In this document: piece by piece, positions 1 through 55,110 of the stretch
How the letters are laid out: every line of letters begins with the position of its first letter
Position numbering within the stretch: position 1 is the stretch's first letter
Assembly (NCBI RefSeq): GCF_050624435.1
Contig: NC_134542.1
Span: 108,111,677 to 108,175,676 of the forward strand
Direction of reading: 5' to 3'
Source of the DNA: Tenrec ecaudatus
Lineage: Eukaryota > Chordata > Mammalia > Afrosoricida > Tenrecidae
Length of the DNA stretch: 64,000 nt
Position numbers and translations under genes: made by a program
Notes under the pieces: model-generated
The model's database searches: none
Told to the model about the DNA's origin: nothing
What the model saw: the letters and a program-made list of their open reading frames with translations, nothing else

Positions 1-244
1 CAAGATTTGTGTCCCACAAGTATGCAAACATTTCCATTTTCCTGTCATGGAAATCTGAGGGACAGAATTCTTCATGGAAGGGTTACAGAAAGAGAAACAT
101 TGTCCTTAGAACTGTACAGATCTAGATGTGTTAAGAAATAATAGCTTCACATTTTTTATATCTGTGTTTAATGGAAGCATCTCTAACTTCTTTAGAAACA
201 TATTTTAACTGCCAGAAGAAAAAAACAAATCTGGTAGAATGTAC

Positions 245-505
245 TTGAGAATCAAGGAGACTTCATCTCACATACTTTCAGCATGCTGTCAGGAGGGATC
301 AGCCTCCAGAGAGGGATATGGTACATGATGTAGGATCAGCAGAAAATAAACAAAAGTCCCTTAGTAAGATAAATTGTCAAGTGACTGCAGCTATCAACTC
401 AAAGCTAGAGATTACTGTGAGTATGGCTGAGAGCAAGGAGATGGTTTATTCTGCTTTACATAGAGATATTACAAGCCAGAACCGACTACAGGACAGTTTA
501 TTCCA
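245..505 (+). mobile_element. RTE/BovB LINE fragment, 3' end
   Basis: The text runs through the end of the BovB open frame (tcatctcacatacttt, gtcaggagggatcag) into the BovB 3' tail (ttctgctttacatagagat, then ccgactacaggaca). Many substitutions show it is old. It encodes nothing intact. Confidence 0.75.
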
Positions 506-589
506 ACAGCATACAAAAACATGGCAGGATTTTCTTCTCTAAAGAACCCAGCTTAAGACACAAGGTTCCTGGTACAAATTGAGATGTTT

Positions 590-943
590 TAACCAATGGG
601 TGTAACACTAGAAGCACTCATTCTATTTCAGGAAATTCAGAATACAACTACCTGAGAAGTCATCTGGAAGAGCTCCATTTGTGGTTATTACAAGAAAGGT
701 GACATAAAAGAATGTGGAAATTATCAAATGATATTATTAATACCACACATAAGCAAAATTATGCTAACAATTTCAGCAGTACATTAACAAGAGCTATCAA
801 ATAAGGACTATCATCATTTCTGTCAGATTGATCTTAACTGAAAGCAGAAAATACCAGAAAGACAATTACGTGTGTTTTATTGACTATACAAAGGTATTTG
901 ATTGCAGTATATATCATGAGGTATTGTGGATAACATTGTTGAA
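590..943 (+). mobile_element. RTE/BovB LINE fragment, reverse transcriptase region
   Basis: Decayed BovB reverse transcriptase text in sense orientation. It includes a stretch corresponding to the segment before RT motif A (gaaagcagaaaataccagaa, then tgtgttttattgactat). It stops at about 943, where the same region of BovB restarts in the opposite direction. Confidence 0.7.
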
Positions 944-1640
944 GCTTTGGCATAGTCAATAAAACACAGGAAAATACCTTTTGGAGTTCTTTCAGCCAAG
1001 ATGCATATGACATCAGCAGTGATAGCTATCATTCCACATCCTTGTGGAATTTTTGGATATCTTGCTTGGATATCTGGACGTTTTTTGTTGATGTACTGCT
1101 GCGAACATTTTAAAATTAACTTTTTGTGTTGCACCACAAACCACAATGTCAGTTGTTGGAAACCACCAGCCTCCCTGAGGGAGAAGGATGAGACTCTGCT
1201 CCTCTAAAGGGTTACACCCCTAGAAACCCACAGGGGCAGCTCTAGTCTGGCCTATAGAGCCACTAGGTTTCGGAATGGCTGTGTGTGTGTGTATAATATT
1301 TTAGTTGTATGTAATATACATTGCACTGCTTGTTAATTTCTGTATTTGGTGGGACCACCTTTCTTTGGAATAGGTATGTATATGGAACTCTTCCAAATGA
1401 TTGACAAAGCACATCTTCCAAATCATACAGTAGTGAATATGTCTAATGTTGCATTCATTTGTCGAAATATCTCAATGGGTGTTTCATTAATTCCTGTTTT
1501 TTACCAGTATTTTCAGAACAACTTGAATTTCTTCCTTAGTTCTACAGGGTATCCACCAATTCTTTTTGGTACAATAATTCCATATTTCTCCCATCCTTTT
1601 TTATGCTGTCTTTCTGAATCATTCATTTTTTTGCCAATAA
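944..1640 (-). mobile_element. RTE/BovB LINE fragment, reverse transcriptase region, split by a SINE
   Basis: Read on the minus strand this is BovB reverse transcriptase. A short open stretch (877-1146, minus) contains FIDYAKA, the usual RT motif A context. The element continues past an AfroSINE inserted at about 1128-1290 and resumes with the upstream RT segment, where rctttggaataggtatgta matches the BovB complement. It overlaps the BovB region of the adjacent plus-strand fragment, so the two form a head-to-head pair. Confidence 0.7.
1128..1290 (+). mobile_element. AfroSINE (tRNA-derived SINE)
   Basis: Carries the AfroSINE body: a box-B-like segment (gttggaaaccaccag), the gggagaaggatgag segment, and gaaacccacaggggcag. 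It interrupts the minus-strand BovB copy and so is younger than it. Confidence 0.8.
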
Positions 1641-1779
1641 ATCCTTCAATATTGTAACTAAAGATCTGGATTTTTTTCTTCAGGGTTTTTTTCCCCACTT
1701 GAACAATATAGCATGATTTTCTTTTTAAATTTCTAACTATAATTTTTGAAGTTATTAAAATACTTTATTTTGTCTTTTC

Positions 1780-2830
1780 TAATAATCATTTTATTGGGAG
1801 CTCTTACAGATATTATAATAATCCATAATTCAGTTAGATGAAGCATAATTTTACAATCACTACTATCAGCTTCAAAACATTTTTATTTCTTTTTGAACTC
1901 TTTGATATCAGCTTCCCCTTTATTCTCGTCCTCCCCACCCTATCCCCTAGAAGCCCTTATTATATTATATATTTTTTGCCACATTTTACACCAAACAATG
2001 TATCCTTTCACCTGCAATTCTGTTACTTTTTCCCCTAAGGGGGGCTTACAGTCATCATTGTTATCAGCTCCCCCTTCCCCCTCCCCCCATTTTCCTGTAC
2101 CCTCAGGGAATCATTACTTCTGTTACTGTTTCTGAAGGGTTATCTATCTTGGCTTTTATCCATCAAATGATCTTAATTATACAAATGAACATATACGTGT
2201 CTAACAAGATTGATGAGGTAAAATGTCCTCTAGTTCTTTGATATTTCCATCCCTCCCTATCATGGTTCTTGTTTTAACTCAGGCCATAATAGTGAGGGGA
2301 GGAAATATTAAAGAAATAGAGGATCTTATGTGCTTTATCAGTGCTCTACGACACTGTAGAAATATCATCTCCTTCGTGAGGCTCTTCTGTGAGGGACTGT
2401 TCTTGTAAGGGAATGTCCAATTATCTTACAGGTGGATTTGGGGGGTCTCTACTTTGTCCGTGCTCCTTTGCATCAACTTGATTGCTTGCTTTTGAACTTC
2501 TTATACCTATCATCATAGATACCTCATGATCACACAGGCTGGTGTGTTTCTTCCACATGGGCTTTGTTGATTCCCCACTAGATGGCTGCTTGTTTAACTT
2601 CAAGCCTTTAAGACCCCAGATGTTATACCCTTGCACCATCAGCTTTCTTTATATTTGCTAAAAAACCCATTTTGTCTTCAGCGATCATGTTGGGAAGGTA
2701 AGTAGCATATAGTGCCACATTAGTAGAACAAACTATTCTGGTACTGAGATAAGATTTAAATTGAAGCTCTAAGTTCGTCTGCTTCCTTGTTGTATTTAAA
2801 TACATATACATACATAGATAGGGCTAACCC
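1780..2830 (-). mobile_element. L1 3'UTR fragment, older afrotherian subfamily
   Basis: The minus strand carries the long 3'UTR typical of this genome's L1s. On the plus strand it starts with ttttattgggagctcttaca. It ends near the block ctggtgtgtttcttccacat, then caagcctttaagacccc, then ttgtcttcagcgatcatg. It is more diverged than the copies at 9972-11621 and 18583-19340 and has only one copy of the block that is doubled in the first of those. Three short open frames inside it are 3'UTR noise. Confidence 0.75.
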
Positions 2831-4194
2831 TTTAGGGTGATGTTCTTGCTCAGAGCAGTTCATTCACAGAGAGGTCTACAGGGCTGCCCTCGGGTTGAGA
2901 CATGATGTCCCCTCCCTAGATGATAGTGCTACAGAGGACAGTACTGAGGATACAGTTTAGGGAGCACTGCTGGTGTGAGCCACATGGGGACAAAGCAAGA
3001 AGTAAGTGCAACAGACCAGTACTGGCAAAAAAGCCATGAAGTCCCTGAGGAATCCTGATTGTAGACTTCTGACTCAGGGGACAGCACTTGGCACCACATC
3101 TGAACTGGTGTGTGTACTCACAAGGAGGGCACACCAAAAGTCCAAAAGTATACAGAGCTGGCGGTGGGGGTTGGGGGTCACTAGACTTGCCGGAAGAGGA
3201 ATGTGGACTTGTAGAAGGTGTACATCTCAGTCCCCGGTGCTGAGGAATAAAAGGGTATAAGTGCTATTAAGTAAATGGGTCCCAGGATATGGAACTCTGG
3301 AAGAAAGGGTGATTGCACTAATGGGTTATAACAGGCCCTACTTGTTATGTAACAGAGAACTAGATACCCATCTACTCTAGGCCAGTATAACAGCTAGACT
3401 TGGGACTATTTGTACTGTCTTTCTTATTTTTTTCTTTTTCTTCATTCTATGTTAGTGAGGCAGGACAAGCAATCCCAAGGAGACAGTGAAGGGACTGACA
3501 GTCCTGAGGGGGTGGGGAATGAGAGCAGAGGAGGCTGAGGTGAGGTGAGCGGTGAGTCAATAATGACAGGGAGAGGGAAATAGCAAGGGCTCTAAAGTTG
3601 ACAGGGTAGCATTCCTGCTCATGTTTAATCAATTGAAATGTGTCAGAGGAATTATTGAGAGGTGAATCATGGGTAAACACGATAGTGGGGCAGGATGAAA
3701 GAAAAAAGAAAAAGGCAAAAGAACAAGAGAGTAAAAATTATATATAGGTATAAATATAAACATGTATATATGTAAATATATAAAGATAGGTGTATTTGTC
3801 TCTTTTGTCTTTTTGAGCTATCATTTAAAATATTCTTCATATCTCATTTGTTCTTTTTACTACAGTGCCTTTCCAGGCAAGAGTCTGTTCTGCCAACTAT
3901 TTTGGGTTTTGTTTTTCCCTGCAGTCTTTCTAATTGCCTTTTGCTTTCTTCATATATAATATCCTTGATGTCATCCCCCCAAACTCATCAGGTCTTTGGT
4001 AATTAATATTCAATATGTCACATCTTTTCTTTCGGTGGGATATTATTGAATGATAATCATAGCAACCAATCTCCCTTGTAAAAACAAGGTTATTATCAAA
4101 TCACGGAGAGCACTTTATTTCAGACAAAATATTGAAACGTTCTTTTAAAACATGAATATATGCTATTTCTCTTTGAGATGTCACTTTCGGGTCA
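2831..4194. other. No gene recognised
   Basis: Purine-rich stretches on the plus strand at 3470-3560 and AT-rich sequence at 3730-3790. The first part may be the remote 5' portion of the neighbouring L1 3'UTR, but I cannot align it with confidence. Confidence 0.4.
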
Positions 4195-4697
4195 TGTGTT
4201 GGTCAAGGTAGACTAGAGAAACAAATTCATAGACACTCATGTGTACAGGAAAGAGCTTTATATAAAGAGTAATTGTACATTAAGAAAATATCCTCACCCA
4301 ATCCTGATCAAGTTCATAAGTCCTTTATTAGCCCATATGTCAGACAGCAATTTGTAAATTCCTCTTCAGTCTCATGCAACACATGCAGTGATGCCGAATG
4401 CAGGAAGATCACAGGCCAGTGGGCGGAAAGTCTTATGGATCCAGTGGTGGCGTAAGCATCTCAGAGCTGGCAGGGGTCCCCGCGTAGTTCTGTCAGCTCC
4501 AGGGCTCTAGCATAGCTCCATGTGTCCTCTCAACAGGAATGTCTCACAGGGAACATGTGAGTACCCTGTTTCCAGCAAGCTATTTTTCTCCTTAGTGGCT
4601 CCAAATGAGGTCATCAAGCTGTGACCTGATTGACAGGCTAAACTCCACCCCTTCACTCTTACGTCTCAGGTTGACAATAGATTATCTAACTACCACA
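4195..4697 (+). mobile_element. Solo LTR-like element, older subtype
   Basis: Begins tgtgttggtcaagg and ends ctaactaccaca. Along its length it matches the other LTR-like copies of this window (gagaaacaaattcatagaca; agcatctcagagctggcagg; gtctcacagg). It is 503 bp. No convincing 5-bp duplication is left (ggtca against gctag), which fits greater age. Confidence 0.65.
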
Positions 4698-5014
4698 GCT
4701 AGTGGATTAGAAGGTTCTCTGATTCAAAATGGTCAAGAATGATTCATTTCAGCTCACAAATGAAAAATATCTCAATCTTCAAGTGTTTCCTTATGTATTT
4801 GATAATTTCCCAGGTTCCTTGATTTGTATTTTGTGAATTCCTCCTTTATTCATACTTGTTACACATTCCACAAATATGTGTGGTTGCTCTTCTCATTTGC
4901 AGTAAGTGTCTACCAGCCACTGAAACTCTCAACAGCTGTGTTCCATCCATGTAATTAAGGTCAGCTCTTCTTTGAGGGTGTAACTCTTCCCCATTCTTAG
5001 GTTGTGAGTTTGTT
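4698..5014. other. No gene recognised
   Basis: AT-rich sequence between the LTR-like element and a SINE. I see no open frame of note or repeat that I can name. Confidence 0.35.
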
Positions 5015-5292
5015 ACTCTCAGGACCCCCATGGCATAATGCTTGCGAGTTGAGCAGCAAACCACAGGGTCAGCTGCTGGACACTACCAGTTGTTCCTCAG
5101 AAGAAAGAAGAGACTTTCTACTCCATCCCAGAGGGTCCCCATGAATCAAACTCGAATTGATGGAAGTGAGGCTGTTTTTTTGGTTATCATACTGAGGAGC
5201 TAATTTTTCAGCATTATATAACTGGGTTGTTGTGAGTTGCCCTCGTTTCAATGGCAATGAGTTTGTTTATTTGTTTGTTTGTTTGTTTGTTT
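5015..5292 (+). mobile_element. AfroSINE copies ending in a (GTTT)n tail
   Basis: A diverged SINE body runs from about 5015 to 5190 (ccatggcataatgc; gactttctactcc). A second SINE 3' end (ttgccctcgtttcaatggcaat) follows at about 5225 and runs into a (GTTT)n tail at 5258-5292. The plan suggests two overlapping insertions or one with an internal duplication. Confidence 0.65.
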
Positions 5293-5784
5293 TATAAGGC
5301 AATATGCTGCCACTATTCAAACCATTTTCACTGACTAATTTTTCCAGAAGTAGATGACTGGATCCTTTTCTCTATACTACATTTGTTTGAAAATGCTGTT
5401 GAAATTTTTCCACTGTAGGTTGTGTTTTAAAAACAGGTGTTTTAAAAACTTGTGTTTTAAAAACAGGTGGCATATTTTCTTATGTCACAGGAACAAGCAA
5501 ATTAACACAGTATGAAAAATTTAGATGTGAATGGTGGAAAGGGAATGGGTATTACTGGGTGCTAAAATAATTCTAAAACAAACAGAAGAAAATCAGATAA
5601 AGACAATGATAAAGGTGGTGACCTATTTTTGAAAACACATTAATGATTTCTGAGTCAAATGTATATGAACTTACTGGTTTCAGGTCAAGGCGATGGTGCT
5701 TCCTACGTGTTGAAACATATATACTAGTCTCTGCACTCAAAAGAGAAGCATAATTGATTGATCTCTGATTACACAATTTAACTC
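5293..5784. other. No gene recognised
   Basis: AT-rich. It holds a local repetition of gtgttttaaaaac at 5424-5466 in three near-identical copies and nothing gene-like. Confidence 0.4.
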
Positions 5785-5990
5785 ATTGCCAGAGTTTCTA
5801 GTGACACAGGGATTAAGCCCTTGGCTGCTAAGTAAAAGGTCAGCAATTCTAACCCAGTACCTGCTTCATGAGAGAAAGCTGTGTCAGACTGCTGCCTTGA
5901 AAATGTACTACACTGGAAATCCCCTTAGGCAGTTATGCTCCACACTGTGGAACATACGAATCAAGACTGATTCAAGCAATGCGTTTTAGA
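5785..5990 (+). mobile_element. AfroSINE, diverged
   Basis: SINE plan still readable: gtgacacagggattaagccc, then ggctgctaagtaaaaggtca, then a gagagaaagctgtgtcagac segment. The 3' half is poor. Confidence 0.6.
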
Positions 5991-8129
5991 GTTCTTGGAA
6001 AATTAAAAGTTGCATTAAAAAGAGATCTCTCTTTACTCTAAAGATTATGTCCTAAACTCGTTTTCTCTCCTGTTGGATTCTAAGTCAACCTTAGTTGCCT
6101 TTGAACCCTATCTCATGTTTGGCTGTGTGTCACAGTAGAATTGTGCTCACTGGGGTCTTTTACAAACATTTTGGTGAAAATACAGATAACACATCCTCTG
6201 TCGTGGCAACATTTTTCACAGGTACAATCCAGCGATTAAACCCATCGGTGATGATGTATAACCATCCCACCAATACCCACTGTTCAGTCTTTCATTTGAC
6301 TCAGAAGTAGATTACAGGACTTGATTCCTTTCAGTTAGCCATCAAGCACATTACCCGTTTTCTATTGCCCATTGCTTAACGATTTAGAGATGGCCTGATG
6401 TTAATTATTTAATCCATTGCTGGTGCTGCATCACCATTATCCAAACAGAGCAAAAACTGGTTTGTATGAAAATTAACGTCAAAGAAAAGTGGTCTGTGCC
6501 TTTGCAGACAGGAACATGGTGGTCCTGCAGGCGTCCATCATCATCGAGCGAAGAATGTTGAGGTCTCAATTTTCCAACATGTCGTGGCAAAGTCTGATTG
6601 TTATGCATTATCTCAAATCATTGCCCAACTCTTCCATTGACTGTCCACCTCTAGCTATAACTCTCATGTCAAAGTCTGATAGAAATGATTTCATCTGTGA
6701 CTCTGCTGAGACACAGTCAAAGCAGTACATTTTGCATAGTGTGGGAAATGATTTTGAGTTTAATCCAGTTCTTAAAGGACAAAAGTTGGCATCCCCAACA
6801 CTCCCCTCACCACTGGCACTAATTAGTTCCCATCCTGACAGCCAAAGTAGATAGTACCGGGACTGAATATTAAGTCAAGGTGGCGTAAACGGCTCTTGCC
6901 CGAAGAGTTTCTATCTCTTGTTCACTACTGAGTTTATTTCTCTCAGGATCTAAGGATGTATTATTATTTGTCATTCTGTTTGTCTAACCAATTACAGTAT
7001 TTATTCTTCTGAAAATATAACATATTTGCTACAAAGAAAATATTACAGACTAAGGAGAAAAGCAACACTAACCTTTTTTAAGTCCTGAATAAAAAGTGAT
7101 CACAACGTAGGTATCTTAAAAGCTGAAACACTAAGTAATATATATTGACACATTTTTCATGTTAGAAGTGATAGAATATTATTTCACCTTGTATTCAAAC
7201 ATTTTAAATATATACCTACTGCCTTTACTTTATTACAAAAGGTATGTTTTAGAATTCATGAAATCCGAAAATCACTTCAAATTCAAATCCACTGACTACC
7301 AGGTAGGTCCTTTCTTTCTATTTAGCCGACTTGGCACTTTTACTTTGTACTTTGAACTTGAAAAGTGCTTATCAGCTTTATTAGTTAACCCTTGTAACGT
7401 GTCCATGAAGGAGACAAATGGTGAGCATTAGTGTGACACACATTAGTGTACTCCTCTGAGAGATGACAGCACAGAAGTTCATGGAGGTTAAATGATTGCC
7501 ACAAGATTGCCCATCAAGTCTTAAGGAAAAAAAACCCTTTGTCTCCATTACCTAACTTCTCACCCATAGCAAGGATAAGGGTAACATTAGGGTACAACAG
7601 CCCACAAGAATCTAAGGTGTAGTTCTCTTTAAAATGAGAGTTCTGCAATGCATTTTGTTAACATACCAAAAATCTATCCATTGAGCAACTATGTTAGATA
7701 TATATTTCTTTGTCACTTCCCCATTTAAGATGGGATCATCTTAAAAGGCTCTGACATAAATTGTTGTGGAAAAGATCGATTAGTTTAAAAGCTTTTTCCT
7801 TTTAACAGATCAGATAGTCATTATATTTCACCCTTTTGCATGTGATTTTCATTGAATCATTTTAATCATTTATTCATTTGGGGAAAAAAATTCACCAAAC
7901 CAGGATGTACTTCAAATCTATTTTTCAGCCCTGGTCTTTCTTGCTAATCTTTGGATTTAAAATTCTGGGAATTGGAAAAAAGTGGCCTACTCCGGAATAC
8001 ATTTCTTCAGAAGCAGAATTTCTAAAAACCTATTCAGCTGTCTTCACAGGACATACTTACCATCTCATTTATAATCCTTTCTCCCATTTAAAAAAGACTA
8101 TTAGCCACAACTAGATCTTTTAGAGTCGA
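5991..8129. other. No gene recognised
   Basis: Over 2 kb without a recognisable gene or repeat boundary. A plus-strand open stretch at 6489-6854 (121 codons) has no family signature and no clear splice or promoter context; I treat it as chance. Confidence 0.4.
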
Positions 8130-10755: not shown

Positions 10756-11473
10756 GCAAAAAAAAAAAAAAAAAAGATATAAGTGTGTGTATGTATGTGT
10801 ATTTATGTGTATATGTATATATGTATGTGTATATATATATTATATTAAATGAGGGGGGAAGTGCAGAGTGGAGACCCAAGGCCCAAGTGTCAGCCAATGG
10901 AAATCCCCTCATAGAGGGGCTTAGGAGAGGAGATGGGTTAATTAGGGTGTGAGGTAGTATCGATGAAGAACACAGCTTTCCCCCAGATCCTGGATGCTTC
11001 CTCCCCCCAACTACCATGATCCGAATTCTACCTTACAGGGCTGGATAGGACAGAGGCTGTACACTGGTACATAGGAGGGTTGGAGATACAGGGAATCCAG
11101 GGTGGATGATACCTCCAGGACCAAGGGAGTGAGGGACGATGCTGGGAGAGTGGAGGGTGAGTGGGTTGGAAAGGGGGAACTGATTACAAGGAGCCACATG
11201 TGACCTCTTCCCTGGGAGAGGGACAGCAGAGAAGGGGGGAAGGGAGACCCCGAATAGGGCAAGATATGACAAAATAACGAGGTATAAATTACCAAGGGCA
11301 TATGAGGGAGGGGGGAAAAGGGAGGGAGGGGGGAAAAAAGGAGGACCTGATGCAAGGGGCTTAGGTGAAGAGCAAATGCCTTGAGAGTGATTGGGACAGG
11401 GAGTGTATGGGTATGCTTTGTACAATTGATGTATGTATATGTATGGATTGTGGTAAGAGTTGTTGGAGTCCCT

Positions 11474-11606
11474 AATAAAATGTAAAAGAAGAAAAAAAAA
11501 AAAGAAAAAGAAAATGATTAGGGCAAAATATGTACAGATGTGCTTTATACAATTGATGTATGTCTATGTATGGATTGTGATAAGTGTTGTATGAGCCCCT
11601 AATAAA
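11474..11606 (+). terminator. Two polyadenylation signals in a doubled L1 3' end
   Basis: AATAAA occurs at 11474-11479 and again at 11601-11606, each following a copy of the same L1 terminal segment (tacaattgatgtatgt, then atgtatggattgtg). An A-rich linker, like an old poly(A) tail, lies between them. The minus-strand L1 at 18583-19340 has the same arrangement with signals at 18626-18631 and 18747-18752. Confidence 0.8.
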
Positions 11607-11636
11607 ATGTTTAAAAAAAAAAAAACTTCTGCCATC

Positions 11637-18152: not shown

Positions 18153-19440
18153 TGAGGTAGTTAGTTGATTGTACCAACCTGGCTGATAAACGCATGTGGG
18201 ATTAATTGAAGGGCAGAGGGATAAATGACTAAGTGAGCTTTGCCTTTCAAGTTCTCTGGTTTCTTGCTTTGTGGTGATCACACCAGGGTGCAGCTGCCTT
18301 AGCAGTTCCCTGCTTCAGCTTGCAAGACTGACTTCCTGTAAGACACCCCCACGGAGAAGCTACATGGACCTACCCCGAAGCAGCCCTGGGTGCTGGAGCG
18401 GCCATGTGGAGACTCCTGCCAGCGCTGAGATGCTTACACATTTACTGACTCACCTTACCTCCTGCAGTTGGCATCATTGCCTTGTTTTGTGAGATGGAGG
18501 AGGACTTTGTGGGTTGGTGGCGGACATAAGGGTTAATGCCGGACTTGTGGGCTTGGGCAGCACTGGGTTGGGATGTTTTCTTTTTTTGCTTTCTTTTATT
18601 TATTATTATTTTTTAATTTAAACAATTTATTAGGGGCTCATTCAATTCTTATCACAGTTCATACATATACATACATCAATTGTATAAAGCACATCTGTAC
18701 AGTCTTTGCCCTAATCATTTTTTTCTCCTCTTTTCTTTTTTTACATTTTATTAGGGACTCATACAACTCTTATCACCATCCATACATATACATACATCAA
18801 TTGTATAAAGCACATCCATACATTCCCTGCCCCAATCATTCTCAAGGCATTTGCTCTCCACTTAAGCCCCTTGCATCAGGTCCTCTTTTTTTTTTCCCCT
18901 CCCTCCCTTTTCCCCCCTCCCTCATGTGCCCTTGGTAATTTATACATTGTTATTTTGTCATATCTTGCCCTATCCGGAGTCTCCCTTCCCCCCTTCTCTG
19001 CTGTCCCTTTCCCAGGGAAGAGGTCACATGTGGATCCTTGTAATCAGTTCCCCCTTTCCAACCCACTCACCCTCCACTCTCCCAGCATCGTCCCTCACAC
19101 CCTTGGTCCTGAAGGTATAATCCACCCTGGATTCCCTGTACCTCCAACCCTCATATGTACAAGTGTACAGCCTCTGTCCTATCCAGGCCTGCAAGGTAGA
19201 ATTTGGATCATGGTAGCTGGGGTGAGGAAGCATCCAGGATCTGGGGGAAAGCTGTGTTCTTCATCGGTACTACCTCGCACCCTAATTAACCCATCTCCTC
19301 CCCTAAACCCCTTTATGAGGGGATCTCCATTGGCCGACACTTGGGATGTTTTCTTGATGCTCACTTAACCTTTATATACAACTCTCTTTTATACATGAGT
19401 TTCTGTGGATTTGTTTCTCTAAAGTACCCAGACTAATACA
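18153..19440 (-). mobile_element. Solo LTR (515 bp) split by a nested L1
   Basis: Exact 5-bp duplication aaggc at 18148-18152 and 19441-19445. On the plus strand the element starts tgaggtagttagtt and ends cagactaataca. Removing the nested insertion and one target copy leaves 430 + 85 = 515 bp, the same length as the copy at 61027-61541. TG...CA ends and a 5-bp duplication are the signature of an LTR integrated by an ERV-L/MaLR type integrase. No internal proviral sequence is present. Confidence 0.85.
18568..19355 (-). mobile_element. 5'-truncated L1 3'UTR nested in the LTR
   Basis: The direct repeat ttgggatgttttctt (15 bp) lies at 18568-18582 and 19341-19355. The L1 between them (18583-19340, 758 bp) is in minus orientation with its poly(A) end at the left. 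It carries the same doubled 3' terminus as the 9972-11621 copy. Two overlapping open frames (18871-19368 and 18926-19120) are non-coding 3'UTR. Confidence 0.9.
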
Positions 19441-28451: not shown

Positions 28452-28571
28452 TGTCGGGAGCCATGAGGCCCAGCCATAACTTTGCCTGTCTGTAGCCATG
28501 AGGCCCCGCCATTGTCTTGATCTTTATTACCTGAGCTCTAACTTTCCACAGGAACTGTTTTTTCTGCAGTC

Positions 28572-28695
28572 ATTGTTCTCAGGGAAACACCTGCAGCTTG
28601 CTTCCCCCATTTATTGTTCTCAGGGAAACACCTGTGGCTTGCTTCCCTCATTTATTGTTCTCAGGGAATCACCTGCAGCTTATTTCCCTTTCCCT
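28572..28695 (+). repeat. 41-bp direct repeats in U3
   Basis: Units begin attgttctcaggga at 28572, 28613 and 28654, exactly 41 bp apart. The 3' LTR has only two units (30344 and 30385). U3 repeats of this kind usually act as enhancers in retroviruses and change number readily. Confidence 0.92.
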
Positions 28696-28699
28696 GGCC

Positions 28700-28707
28700 T
28701 ATATAAG
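28700..28707 (+). promoter_or_regulatory. TATA box of the 5' LTR
   Basis: tatataag just after the U3 repeats. The same site lies at 30431-30438 in the 3' LTR. Confidence 0.75.
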
Positions 28708-28838
28708 CTGTAGCCTTTTACTCAATCAATGAGACTTGATCAGACTGCTTTCTTGTCTCCATTTCTCATGTCTCTTGTCCCCCCAATTCCCACTCCCTCC
28801 TCCAGGGTCGCATTGAAGTTCCTGTGGGTCGGGACATC

Positions 28839-28856
28839 TGGCGCCCAATGTGGGGC
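28839..28856 (+). promoter_or_regulatory. Primer binding site, tRNA-Lys(1,2) type
   Basis: Eighteen bases starting tggcgcccaa, differing at one position from the tRNA-Lys(1,2) complement used by betaretroviruses such as Mason-Pfizer monkey virus. It sits two bases after the 5' LTR. Confidence 0.88.
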
Positions 28857-28976
28857 CCGGATACGAGAGATACCATGAGGAAGAAGGCGCCAAAGAAGGC
28901 CGGGGAGTGAGGCCAGAGAGTAAAAGTGAAAGAAAAATCCTTCGGCTGCCGCGGGAGCCTGCCACACCGAGACTGA

Positions 28977-28984
28977 AGGTTAGT
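28977..28984 (+). promoter_or_regulatory. Possible leader splice donor
   Basis: ag/gttagt lies 20 bases before the gag start, a normal place for the major splice donor that would produce env mRNA. Confidence 0.35.
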
Positions 28985-28998
28985 AAAAGCGTCTGAAA

Positions 28999-29673
28999 AT
29001 GGGACAAGAATTAAGCCAGCATCAGATTTATGTTAAACAGTTGAAAGAGGCTTTAAAGACACGAGGAGTAAAGGTTAAAAGTTATGATTTATTTAAATTT
29101 TTTGACTTTATAAAAGATACTTGTCCTTGGTTTCCACAGGAAGGGACAATTGATATAAAAATATGGAAAAGGGTTGGCAGTGCTTTGGAGCATTATTATG
29201 AGGTCTTTGGACAGGAAAGAATTCCTGTTACAGCTTTTTCTTATTGGAATTTAATTAAAGATTTGATAGATAGGAAGGAGAGTTGTCCGCAAATAACGGG
29301 GGCCATTGCCCAGACGGAAGAAATATTAAAAGTAAGTTCTAAAACAGATCTCAGAAAGTCTCCACCAGAGAAGGAGATTGACATTATTTCTCTAGAAAGT
29401 GATGAAGAGGGGGCCAAGGGTCCTCCTATAATAGAGGAACTTAAAGAAAACATTAGTCAGCTTAAAGAAGAGATAAAACTAGAAGAGTTACATCAGTCTG
29501 TGATTACCAGGCTGCAGACATTGAGATCAGGGTGTCAGAACCAGAAAAAGGGACAGAAATTGCCCGCCCACTTCAACAGCCTAGGCAATATCTCCCTACA
29601 AAGAAAATGCTTGCAGAAAGAGAGGAGGGGGATTTCTCTCCTGTACATGCTTTCCCAGTTACTGAGACCATAG
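28999..29673 (+). pseudogene. gag: Betaretroviral gag, matrix and following region (broken)
   Basis: Open for 224 codons. The ATG has a strong context (A at -3, G at +4) and starts MGQ, so Gly2 is set for myristoylation and membrane targeting. Residues 1-100 look like a betaretroviral matrix domain. Residues 42-50 read CPWFPQEGT, the region which in type-D viruses contributes to the cytoplasmic targeting signal for assembly near the centrosome. An acidic stretch ([12 protein letters not shown]) and a helical charged stretch (about 145-168) follow. No PPPY or PSAP late motif is visible. From about 29530 the retroviral reading moves to another frame, so the last ~45 codons here are out of frame. 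I infer a small indel there. Confidence 0.85.
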
Positions 29674-29809
29674 ATGAGCAGGGGAGCCTGTCCGAAATTA
29701 TGTTGGGCTCAAATTCGCCCTCATAAAGGAATTAAAAAAGGCTTTTCTCAATATGGGGCTACCTCTCCATACAGCTTAGCCCTTTTAGATTCTTTGGCTG
29801 AACGGGCTT
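29530..29809 (+). pseudogene. gag: Remains of gag: end of the matrix-linker and start of capsid
   Basis: Gag-like text runs in the frame of 29532-29726 and then returns to the original frame by about 29700, so there are two compensating shifts. The capsid probably begins at about 29655 (PVTE), with a typical capsid N-terminal segment in the second part (FSQYGATSPYSLALLDSL). It breaks off at about 29809, where env sequence begins. Confidence 0.75.
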
Positions 29810-29995
29810 TTACCCTATCTCTTACTACTTTTGGGCCCCTTGGTTAGCCTATTACTCTTGCTCTCACTGGGACCTGTGGTGTTTACCAAGCTCATGGCAT
29901 TTATCAAGCAACAGATTGAGGCCATCCAGGCAAAGCCTATACAGGTCCATTACCACCGCCTTGAGATGTGCGAACAGGGTGGCTCATACGAGTAG
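29810..29995 (+). pseudogene. env: C-terminal end of Env transmembrane subunit
   Basis: About 61 codons open to a stop at 29993-29995. It starts with a very hydrophobic membrane-spanning segment (LLLLLGPLVSLLLLLSLGPV) followed by a basic and amphipathic cytoplasmic tail. The layout resembles the end of type-D and gammaretroviral Env. There is no start codon, surface subunit or fusion peptide, so this is only a remnant fused by deletion to the capsid remnant in a different frame. Env normally mediates entry; this piece cannot. Confidence 0.8.
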
Positions 29996-30003
29996 TTATG
30001 ATA

Positions 30004-30190
30004 AGACCCCCTGCCCTTGTGTGCTGAACTGGACAGTCAATGACGGGTAAGGTCGGCACAAGACATACCAACCTAAGACAGACATTGGTTTGCTCTTATT
30101 TTATGAAAGCATTCCATTGATCAATGACGGGTAAGGATGACTCTTGATGCCTGACAACCTAAGACAGACGCAGTTCCCGAAGGGATCTCT
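30004..30190 (+). promoter_or_regulatory. Constitutive transport element-like RNA (CTE)
   Basis: Between the env stop and the polypurine tract lie paired copies of two short motifs in the order tgacgggtaa (30041), aacctaagaca (30070), tgacgggtaa (30125), aacctaagacag (30156). This two-fold arrangement is the hallmark of the type-D retroviral CTE, in which the motifs form two identical internal loops that bind the cellular export receptor NXF1/TAP and carry unspliced RNA out of the nucleus. The stretches 30050-30066 and 30135-30155 are complementary by eye, as needed for the stem between the loops; 30081-30124 would form the apical part. Position just upstream of the 3' LTR agrees with Mason-Pfizer monkey virus. 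Confidence 0.88.
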
Positions 30191-30206
30191 CTTGGTTTTA
30201 CAAAAT

Positions 30207-30219
30207 AAAAAAAGGGAGA
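30207..30219 (+). promoter_or_regulatory. Polypurine tract
   Basis: aaaaaaagggaga ends two bases before the 3' LTR, where plus-strand DNA synthesis would be primed. Confidence 0.88.
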
Positions 30220-30221
30220 CC

Positions 30222-30565
30222 TGTCAGGAGCCATGAGACCCGGCTATAACTTTGCCTGTCCATAGCCATGAGGCTCAGCCATTGTCTTGATCTTTATTGC
30301 CTGAGCTCTGTAACTTTCCACAGGAACTGTTTTTTCTGCAGTCATTGTTCTCAGGGAAACACCTGTGGCTTGCTTCTCCCCGTTATTGTTCTCAGGGAAT
30401 CACCTGCTGCTTATTTCCCTTTCCCTGGCCTATATAAGCTGAAGCCTTTTACTCAATCAACGAGACTTGATCAGACTGCTGTCTTGTCTCCTTTTCTCAT
30501 GTCTCTTGTCCCCCCCAAGTCCCACTCCTTCCTCCAGGGTCCGCGTTGAAGTTCCCACGGGGACA
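30222..30565 (+). repeat. 3' LTR of the betaretrovirus
   Basis: 344 bp from tgtcaggagccatgag to ggggaca. It is 41 bp shorter than the 5' LTR because one U3 unit is missing. TATA box at 30431-30438. Flanks give no exact 6-bp duplication; the nearest pair is gcaatg (28446-28451) and gaaatg (30570-30575), the second offset by four bases. Confidence 0.92.
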
Positions 30566-49400: not shown

Positions 49401-50569
49401 TTCAATAGAAAGAACTAAAAATGTCAAATTAGGTTTAAAGATTCTCCACGCCAATCCAAAGGAGCTTCTTAGAACTACTCTATTTTACTGGGAAGATTTA
49501 ATTTACTGCACTGATGGATCTTTCTCTCCTCATACTTTAATGGGCCCTTAGTATTCAAGCATCATCTCTCAGTGCTTGCTCCTGGAGGCCTGAGAACAGG
49601 ATCTGGGTATAATTGCCTCCAAAGGACTAAAACATCAGCTGTCCCTTCCTATTCCCAAAGACCCTTCTTAATTTTTCACTCCTATAATTATCATGGGTAA
49701 TTTTAGGGACAGATGTATAATCACTTGCTTAATGTAAAACGTCCTTGGCCAGAGTCTGGTGTCGTATTCTGCCAGCCTTTCCATTGGAGTCAGGCTTGTC
49801 CTAGAACATGTTTTGTGCTGTAAGAGTGGTTGGTCCTGTGCCTGCTCTTTATTTCAGCTGCAGAGATTCTTAATCTTTCCTTTGACACTTGTGGGTTAGA
49901 AGCCTGAAAAGGATTTCAGGTTCCTTGCTACTTCCTCTAGTGTCTGTCCAGCAGTCTGTTCTTTGCCTTACTGTGTGGTATCATTCTTTGAAAGATTGCC
50001 TTCCCTTTTGATTAATCTACATTTTTGTTTCTGTTAGTTGGTCTATAAATTTAAATTTTTACCTCTTTCCTTTTCAGCTAATATAGGCAAATCAATGTAA
50101 GTGCCATACAACACATTTTTTTTTTACACTGCCGCAGAGAATCTTCCAATCACCAGCTACTGAGCAAAGTGGGAATGGAGTGGGTCTCTTACAGGCTTGT
50201 TTTCCCTCCCGTCTCTGAAGCTGGCAGAATACTGGCTATTCTCCCGATGCGGTCCTGGGAGGTCCTCTTTTTGTTCTGCATACAGTAAAATTTCTCGTCA
50301 TCTACAAACTAAAAAGGTGTCTTTTTTTTAATGAGTGCTCATCTTGGACATATATCCTGTGCAAATTTTGGAAAGAAGATGGAGGTTTTCTATTTTCAAA
50401 TGTCAAATATTAAATGTTCCCATCAACAGCTGATAAAATGTTACTCATATTTTAAATCAGTGGACACAGTGAGTGAGATAACAGGAGCCTTAAGAATTAT
50501 TGTGTTTTAAGCAAGAGAAACACTTGTTAGATTTGGTCCCTGAAAATACAATTGCAATTTATTGGACCT
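49401..50569. other. No gene recognised
   Basis: Moderate GC with no long open frame and no repeat that I can name. It could be single-copy sequence. Confidence 0.4.
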
Positions 50570-52195: not shown

Positions 52196-52369
52196 CAAGG
52201 TGTCTTTAGAATTCATGATATGAGAATTTGTCCTTCTAAGATGTTCCAGGTGACGGTTGATTGGAACTTTTAAGAAATTCCAGGTGCCATTGGTGAAATT
52301 ATTCTTTTAACACCACTGACCTGATTTATTTTTATTCTCATCGTAAGCGAAGATACCAAGAACCAAACA

Positions 52370-52545
52370 CAATGCCATTGAGTCAATGCTGACTCATGGT
52401 GACCCACTGTGGGTTCCAGAGACTATACATTTTTATAGGAGCAGAAAGTCCAGTCTTTCTCCCATGGAGCTGCTCATGATTTCAAACTGCTGATAACCAA
52501 GATCCCAGCCCAAAGCTTCATTACTACACTGTCAATGCTCCTCCA
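52370..52545 (-). mobile_element. AfroSINE
   Basis: ccattgagtcaatgctgact, then catggtgacccactgtgggt, ending ttactacactgtcaatgctc. Confidence 0.72.
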
Positions 52546-54925: not shown

Positions 54926-55110
54926 GAGCCCTGGTGGTGTAGTGGCCATGTGTTGAGCTGCGATCTGCATGGTCAGCAGTTTGAAACCACCGGCAGCTCC
55001 AAGGGAGAAAGATGAGCTTTCTACTCCTGTAACAGTTATAGTCTCAGAAACCCACAGGGCGTCTCTGTGAGTCAGCATTGACCTGATGGCAGTGAGTTTG
55101 AGTTTTTTTG
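54926..55110 (+). mobile_element. AfroSINE, best-preserved copy
   Basis: A full-length copy starting gagccctggtggtgtagtgg, with RNA polymerase III box A near 54934-54945 (tggtgtagtggc) and box B near 54977-54988 (cagtttgaaacc). It ends gatggcagtgagtttgagtt and a T-rich tail. Its low divergence makes it the best reference for the other copies here. Confidence 0.88.

What the first reader, a model, noticed from the sequence alone, without database searches (positions are those of the whole stretch)
30004..30190. A type-D retrovirus CTE fossil in an afrotherian genome
Seen: four half-motifs in the order tgacgggtaa, aacctaagaca, tgacgggtaa, aacctaagacag, with complementary stem stretches, between env and the polypurine tract. 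Known: this is the plan of the Mason-Pfizer type CTE that recruits NXF1/TAP for export of unspliced RNA. Inference: a betaretrovirus with this export strategy infected the ancestors of this afrotherian, and the RNA element survived while nearly all coding sequence was lost. It may still act on any transcript that reads through the locus.
Basis: partly seen in the sequence, partly recalled or inferred. Interest (0 to 1): 0.75.

Follow-up and report, generated by a model that had tools for sequence, protein, structure and literature searches.

The report
Retroviral export element in mini-provirus family
The stretch looks like the RNA export signal of a monkey-type retrovirus, and it sits in one copy of a gutted virus that spread through this mammal's genome as a short, largely gene-less element in which that signal is among the best-kept inner parts.

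Summary
Observation confirmed. 30025-30178 holds the four half-motifs in the stated order and folds in silico into one hairpin with two internal loops related by 180-degree rotation, between the env stop and the polypurine tract. It belongs to an MPMV-like betaretroviral remnant: Rfam MPMV packaging signal (226.6 bits), MPMV-type matrix, gammaretrovirus-type Env tail. But it is not a lone fossil. The host genome holds many copies of the same deleted form: 29 of 29 other loci fetched with a matrix query share the gag-to-env junction and the CTE, and 9 of 16 bounded copies have exact, different 6-bp target duplications, so the element integrated already deleted, repeatedly. Best reading: a non-autonomous mini-retrovirus of cis-acting parts, mobilised in trans. 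With its 32-nt lead-in the CTE is the least diverse internal part (non-CpG diversity 0.010-0.011 against 0.041-0.051 in the four larger segments), even against each copy's own LTR divergence; that is unexplained. NXF1 binding and export were not testable; helper searches did not complete; 'afrotherian' rests on recalled repeats.

The parts
28452..28836 (+). 5' LTR (starts TGT, ends ACA), with one more 41-bp U3 repeat unit than the 3' LTR
   Evidence: 24 mismatches in 336 aligned bases to the 3' LTR, K2P 0.0756
28839..28856 (+). primer-binding site, read as the tRNA-Lys type
   Evidence: place; aligned to the first positions of RF00459; the tRNA-Lys reading is recalled and fits PMC3621094 passages
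28839..29128 (+). MPMV packaging signal, whole Rfam model RF00459
   Evidence: 226.6 bits, gathering 54; 20 of 20 sister loci scanned also match, 70.6-241.9 bits (20 of 27 then held)
28999..29530 (+). matrix region of gag, open in the window
   Evidence: PF02337 97.3 bits; M-PMV matrix chains in the PDB 165-196 bits
29531..29795 (+). rest of gag, frameshifted, ending in the start of capsid
   Evidence: Gag_p24 18.7 bits, below its cut-off of 24
29796..29995 (+). C-terminal tail of a gammaretrovirus-type Env with its stop; the deletion junction lies at about 29795-29814
   Evidence: PF00429 23.0 bits, cut-off 22.5; best PDB match Syncytin-2, E 0.00097; stop 29993-29995
30025..30178 (+). CTE-like hairpin
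30039..30051 (+). lower internal loop, 5' side (motif at 30041-30050)
30070..30080 (+). upper internal loop, 5' side
30123..30134 (+). upper internal loop, 3' side (motif at 30125-30134)
30156..30166 (+). lower internal loop, 3' side
30207..30219 (+). polypurine tract
   Evidence: position just before the 3' LTR
30222..30565 (+). 3' LTR

Best explanation
The stretch is a constitutive transport element of the MPMV/SRV kind inside one copy of a non-autonomous retroviral family. An MPMV-like betaretrovirus lost everything between early capsid and the Env membrane tail in one deletion. The roughly 2.1-kb remnant kept cis-acting parts: LTRs, primer site, packaging signal, CTE, polypurine tract. Inferred mechanism: its unspliced RNA leaves the nucleus because the two loops of the CTE recruit NXF1, and proteins of a helper virus package, copy and integrate it; copies without a working CTE spread poorly. 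Shown: anatomy, fold in silico, shared deletion, repeated integration in the deleted state, low diversity of the CTE block. Inferred: NXF1 recruitment, export, packaging, the helper, and selection for export as the cause of the low diversity.
For: Core fold and motif repeats. Packaging signal in the window and in 20 of 20 sister loci scanned. Same junction in 18 of 26 loci of a CTE query, 29 of 29 of a matrix query and 13 of 13 CTE-bearing loci of an LTR query, window left out each time. Exact, all different 6-bp target duplications in 9 of 16 bounded matrix-query loci and 5 of 6 in two more. Matrix frame broken in 13 of 15 rows, codon positions differing alike (0.049, 0.065, 0.064). Star-like matrix tree, 4.3% of length internal. 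Non-CpG diversity of the CTE 0.011 against 0.041-0.051 in matrix-query loci, which were not chosen by the CTE.
Against: The stretch as given folds no better than 22 of 200 shuffles and the lower loop is weak with native flanks. No MPMV CTE sequence could be aligned; the match of the motifs to MPMV is recalled. No helper provirus was shown. Matrix pN/pS is 0.59, so some past coding constraint is not excluded. Selection during spread does not explain the shortage of private CTE changes after insertion. The window itself has no target duplication. Loci are the best-ranked of more candidates (40 scored of 233, 123 and 855).
Confidence: 0.66

Rival explanations
1. The mini-retrovirus family is real, but the CTE did nothing for its spread; it is a passenger beside the polypurine tract, and its low diversity comes from gene conversion, a low local mutation rate or ranked sampling.
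For: Private changes fall stepwise: MA 0.0166, rest of gag 0.0132, TM 0.0072, CTE block 0.0033, which a sharp functional edge does not predict. The deficit is in changes after insertion, where selection on dozens of copies is hard to believe. Private-to-shared ratios do not differ significantly (p 0.09, 0.76, 0.78, 0.18).
Against: Trinucleotide context predicts 72 private changes against 17 seen; the TM rate predicts 37. The deficit appears in loci chosen by the matrix, not the CTE. In the pooled, overlapping samples changes at paired sites keep pairing in 10 of 23 cells, against 52 of 294 possible single changes.
Confidence: 0.25
2. Copies arose by duplication and recombination of host DNA after one insertion, not by repeated retroviral integration.
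For: One array has four units with CTEs exactly 1710 bp apart. The window copy and four other bounded loci (L074, L076, L077, L091) lack a good 6-bp duplication.
Against: Nine of 16 bounded loci have exact 6-bp duplications, all different.
Confidence: 0.05
3. A lone dead provirus whose CTE survived by chance while coding sequence decayed at this locus.
For: The window alone looks like this; under neutral decay the four motifs had a 0.22 chance of no change.
Against: Many copies share the deletion and the CTE.
Confidence: 0.02

Closest known systems
Constitutive transport element of MPMV / simian type D retroviruses
   Same: Length class and plan: long stem-loop of about 150-175 nt with two internal loops (PMC7551171, passages), immediately downstream of env (PMC3621094, passages); the same loop motifs by recall.
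MPMV-like type D betaretroviruses (group VIII of PMC3621094; the SRV, SMRV, DrERV, TvERV, MicrocebusERV-2-3 clade of PMC9825726, passages)
   Same: MPMV-type matrix and packaging signal with gammaretrovirus-type Env.
   Different: Reduced to a cis-only remnant; no pol to place on a tree.
SERV-K/MER11 element with a CTE-like region (PMC11379458, passages)
   Same: Endogenous betaretrovirus with a 3' export element that can act without a viral protein.
   Different: That region is about 1000 nt, with no MPMV-like NXF1 loops according to the paper.
Non-autonomous LTR elements moved by a relative, such as mouse ETn with MusD (recalled, no call)
   Same: Internally deleted, LTR-bounded, dispersed copies that integrated in the deleted state.
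   Different: Here an MPMV-type CTE is retained and is among the best-kept internal parts; the helper is unknown.

Membership tests
MPMV-type CTE | lies between env and the polypurine tract / 3' LTR | tested here: met
   (env stop 29993-29995, tract 30207-30219, 3' LTR from 30222)
MPMV-type CTE | long stem-loop of about 150-175 nt with two internal loops | tested here: met
   met for the 154-nt core; feature from PMC7551171 passages
MPMV-type CTE | both loops form in native flanks | tested here: inconclusive
   upper loop above 0.99 in five contexts, lower 0.003-0.52 in the four longer ones; 10 of 52 rows in 231 nt
MPMV-type CTE | sequence alignment to the MPMV or SRV CTE | not tested
   no reference sequence came from any call; motif identity is recalled
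MPMV-type CTE | binds NXF1 and exports intron-containing RNA | not testable with these tools
   bench test needed
MPMV-like type D betaretrovirus | MPMV-type packaging signal and matrix | tested here: met
   RF00459 226.6 bits; PDB M-PMV matrix 165-196 bits against 54-58 for other chains
MPMV-like type D betaretrovirus | gammaretrovirus-type Env | tested here: met
   PF00429 just above cut-off in the window; 227 bits in sister copy L044
MPMV-like type D betaretrovirus | dUTPase in pro | tested here: met
   only in sister copy L044; the window has no pro
MPMV-like type D betaretrovirus | place of pol on a tree | not testable with these tools
   no pol in the window or in the pieces seen
Non-autonomous LTR element family | many copies with one and the same deletion | tested here: met
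   18 of 26, 29 of 29, 13 of 13
Non-autonomous LTR element family | independent integrations in the deleted state | tested here: met
   exact 6-bp duplications in 9 of 16 bounded loci
Non-autonomous LTR element family | a helper with pol in the same genome | not tested
   searches did not complete

The most novel reading that the evidence does not exclude
The CTE blocks of many dispersed copies have stayed under constraint after insertion, because host transcripts that carry them depend on the NXF1 loops: a genome-wide set of viral export signals that the host still uses. Basis: the CTE block has about a fifth of the private changes of the matrix and about half those of the TM tail in the same 28 copies, and nine copies with exact target duplications show 6 changes against 27.8 expected from their own LTR divergence.
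Probability: 0.12. Interest if true: 0.9.

Novelty: new variant of a known kind. Interest (0 to 1): 0.62.

Why it matters
It shows which parts an MPMV-like virus keeps when it is reduced to an amplified cis-only element, and the export signal is one of them and among the least changed. It offers dozens of natural replicates for asking whether a CTE was needed for spread, and whether retroviral export signals left in a genome still act on host RNAs.

Tried and rejected
Chance motifs: rejected. Wider motif patterns matched 23 viral and 14 prokaryote contigs, 37 motif pairs in all; none has two pairs within 250 bases, so I take them as chance. The strict pattern found none in viral contigs. A matrix query of viral contigs found no relative. 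A printed CTE sequence in papers: 49 papers hold one of the strings; of the 20 listed none is about CTEs by title. Zolotukhin 2001 is not held. A contrast of shared with private changes was not significant. Host genes: ten ORFs gave one weak, implausible Pfam match. The first register check of the loop helices was mis-set and reads 0 and 0; it was redone. First-pass LTR edges were wrong for several copies and were redone. Notebook slips, mended here: says the junction is in 8 of 8 first loci (six of seven others show its gag side); one search says 15 of 30 LTR loci are solo and 15 have internal sequence (16 and 14); one search says all four array units are 99.9-100% alike (two in-register comparisons are).

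Paper searches that bear on novelty: 'constitutive transport element' with 'tenrec' gave one paper, PMC8579622, about another element (passages); 'betaretrovirus', 'endogenous' and 'Afrotheria' gave 18 (listing); 'tenrec' and 'betaretrovirus' gave 13 (listing; PMC9825726 passages). I saw no report of a CTE in such a host in these; the library omits most subscription journals.

Full report
What is there. The stretch lies in a short proviral remnant at 28452-30565 on the plus strand: 5' LTR, primer-binding site, an Rfam MPMV packaging signal covering the whole model (226.6 bits), an open matrix region (PF02337 97.3 bits; the six best solved chains, 165-196 bits, are matrix or core p10 entries, two of them named M-PMV, while other Gag or matrix chains score 54-58), a frameshifted rest of gag with a sub-threshold capsid match, a jump into the C-terminal end of a gammaretrovirus-type Env (PF00429, just above cut-off), the hairpin, a polypurine tract and the 3' LTR. 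Betaretroviral gag with gammaretrovirus-type env is the combination of the MPMV-like type D clade (PMC3621094, passages).

The hairpin. In the 154-nt core both loops form: each has an ACCU/GGGU helix flanked by AAUGAC opposite AAGACA, the second loop being the first turned round. AAGACA is also the conserved motif of the gamma-CTE of MLV that recruits NXF1 (PMC7551171, passages). Against this, the coordinates as given fold no better than 22 of 200 shuffles, and the lower loop is weak once flanks are added. The upper loop is firm: above 0.5 in 51 of 52 rows in both longer contexts (the rows come from two overlapping samples).

The turn in the story. The host genome (3.92 Gb in 2140 contigs) was searched with the 187-nt stretch: 233 first-look candidates, 40 scored, the window at 100% and 39 others at 99%. 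Of the seven other loci first fetched, all run from CTE into the TM tail and six show the junction from the gag side. Of 26 other CTE-query loci (the array L046 left out), 18 span the window's junction; eight (L044, L049, L051, L055, L059, L060, L064, L065) are other forms. In L044, L060 and L055 protease sequence runs into the Env TM domain without pol between; L044 also has dUTPase; L051 has matrix, capsid and protease pieces; an ORF of L065 matched nothing. A matrix query, which does not see the CTE, gave 123 candidates, 40 scored, 30 fetched: all 29 other loci have the junction and the CTE. An LTR query gave 855 candidates, 40 scored, 30 fetched: 16 show no internal segment in the flanks held, as solo LTRs would; 14 do, the window included, and the 13 others all have the CTE and the junction. 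Four of those 13 lie in one array, and the three samples overlap, so they are not independent. No candidate count is a verified copy number.

Integrated already deleted. Of 30 matrix-query loci, the window included, 16 could be bounded at all four LTR edges and 14 were dropped. Nine have exact 6-bp duplications, all different; two have 5 of 6; five, the window included, do not match well. LTR differences at non-CpG sites average 0.046 over the 16, that is 0.023 per LTR. A matrix tree of 30 tips has 4.3% of its length on internal branches, one of 27 nodes with support above 0.9, and a mean tip of 0.033. Together this points to a burst of copies from a source already deleted. Dating is loose: the window's LTR distance of 0.0756 gives 17, 11 or 8 million years at three assumed rates (rates recalled). 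One array of four units with CTEs exactly 1710 bp apart shows later recombination too.

The CTE block is the least diverse internal part. In matrix-query loci the median identity to the window is 98.7% for the CTE (96.8-99.4), 93.8 for MA, 94.3 for the rest of gag, 95.9 for TM, 81.1 for the leader (28 loci) and 89.3 for the LTR. Non-CpG diversity is 0.011 for the CTE and 0.010 for the 32 nt before it, against 0.048 (MA), 0.041 (rest of gag), 0.044 (TM), 0.051 (leader) and 0.020 for the 28 nt after it. The dip runs from about 29981 to 30190. CTE-query loci show it more strongly (0.005), but they were chosen by the CTE. The matrix is not obviously kept as a protein: 13 of 15 rows are broken and codon positions differ alike, though pN/pS is 0.59. 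At 30052 the window has G where 26 of 26 other CTE-query loci have A.

What I cannot explain. Selection for export during spread would make CTEs alike at insertion, but later changes should hit them like their neighbours. They do not: private changes in the CTE block are 0.21 of the matrix rate (95% bootstrap 0.12-0.32), 0.27 of the rest of gag (0.15-0.44) and 0.46 of TM (0.27-0.74) over 28 copies. Nine copies with exact duplications carry 6 changes (30052 left out) against 27.8 expected from their LTRs. Trinucleotide context predicts 72 against 17, the TM rate 37. The stepwise fall from MA to CTE and the non-significant private-to-shared contrast argue against a simple functional reading. Distinct changes lean to the apical loop (8 in 25 nt, against 4 in the 42 motif nt and 16 in the other 87), and changes at paired sites keep pairing in 10 of 23 cells, pooled over two overlapping samples, against 52 of 294 possible single changes, as RNA constraint would. 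Gene conversion, local mutation rate, real constraint after insertion and a bias of best-ranked sampling all stay open.

Mechanism. Shown: anatomy, fold in silico, shared deletion, repeated integration, relative diversity. Inferred from knowledge of MPMV (PMC7551171 and PMC11379458, passages): NXF1 recruitment and export of unspliced RNA, here of the element's own genome. Inferred: packaging and copying by proteins supplied in trans; the packaging signal is present in 20 of 20 sister loci scanned, of 27 held then. No helper was found because those searches did not complete.

Host. 'Afrotherian' was not tested by any search. Repeats at 52364/54953 and 46241/48881 resemble AfroSINE and SPIN elements as I recall them, which would fit a tenrec. 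PMC9825726 reports lemur betaretroviruses matching a tenrec genome at 70% (passages).

Verdict. The locus is not a solitary survivor but one copy of an amplified, pol-less mini-retrovirus in which the CTE block is the least diverse internal part. It is a new variant of a known kind, with an unexplained shortage of changes in the CTE that deserves an unranked genome-wide count.

Noticed in passing
50127-50264, minus strand: SNORA7 match (114.7 bits) followed by a run of nine A, so probably a retrocopy.
   Followed up: partly
L046 (C119), array at 45-7462: Four head-to-tail LTR-internal units with CTEs exactly 1710 bp apart; two in-register comparisons 99.9-100%; the last LTR has extra 35-bp repeats.
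   Followed up: partly
L044, L055, L060, L051, L049: Other deletion forms: protease (with dUTPase in L044) joined to the Env TM end without pol, all with the CTE, which was the query.
   Followed up: partly
   Followed up: no
52364-52513 and 54953-55100: SINE-like repeats that resemble AfroSINE as I recall it.
   Followed up: no
10882-11623 and 18609-19345: Inverted repeat pair of about 740 bp, 91% identical.
   Followed up: no
28536-28689: The 5' LTR has an extra 41-bp U3 repeat unit compared with the 3' LTR.
   Followed up: no
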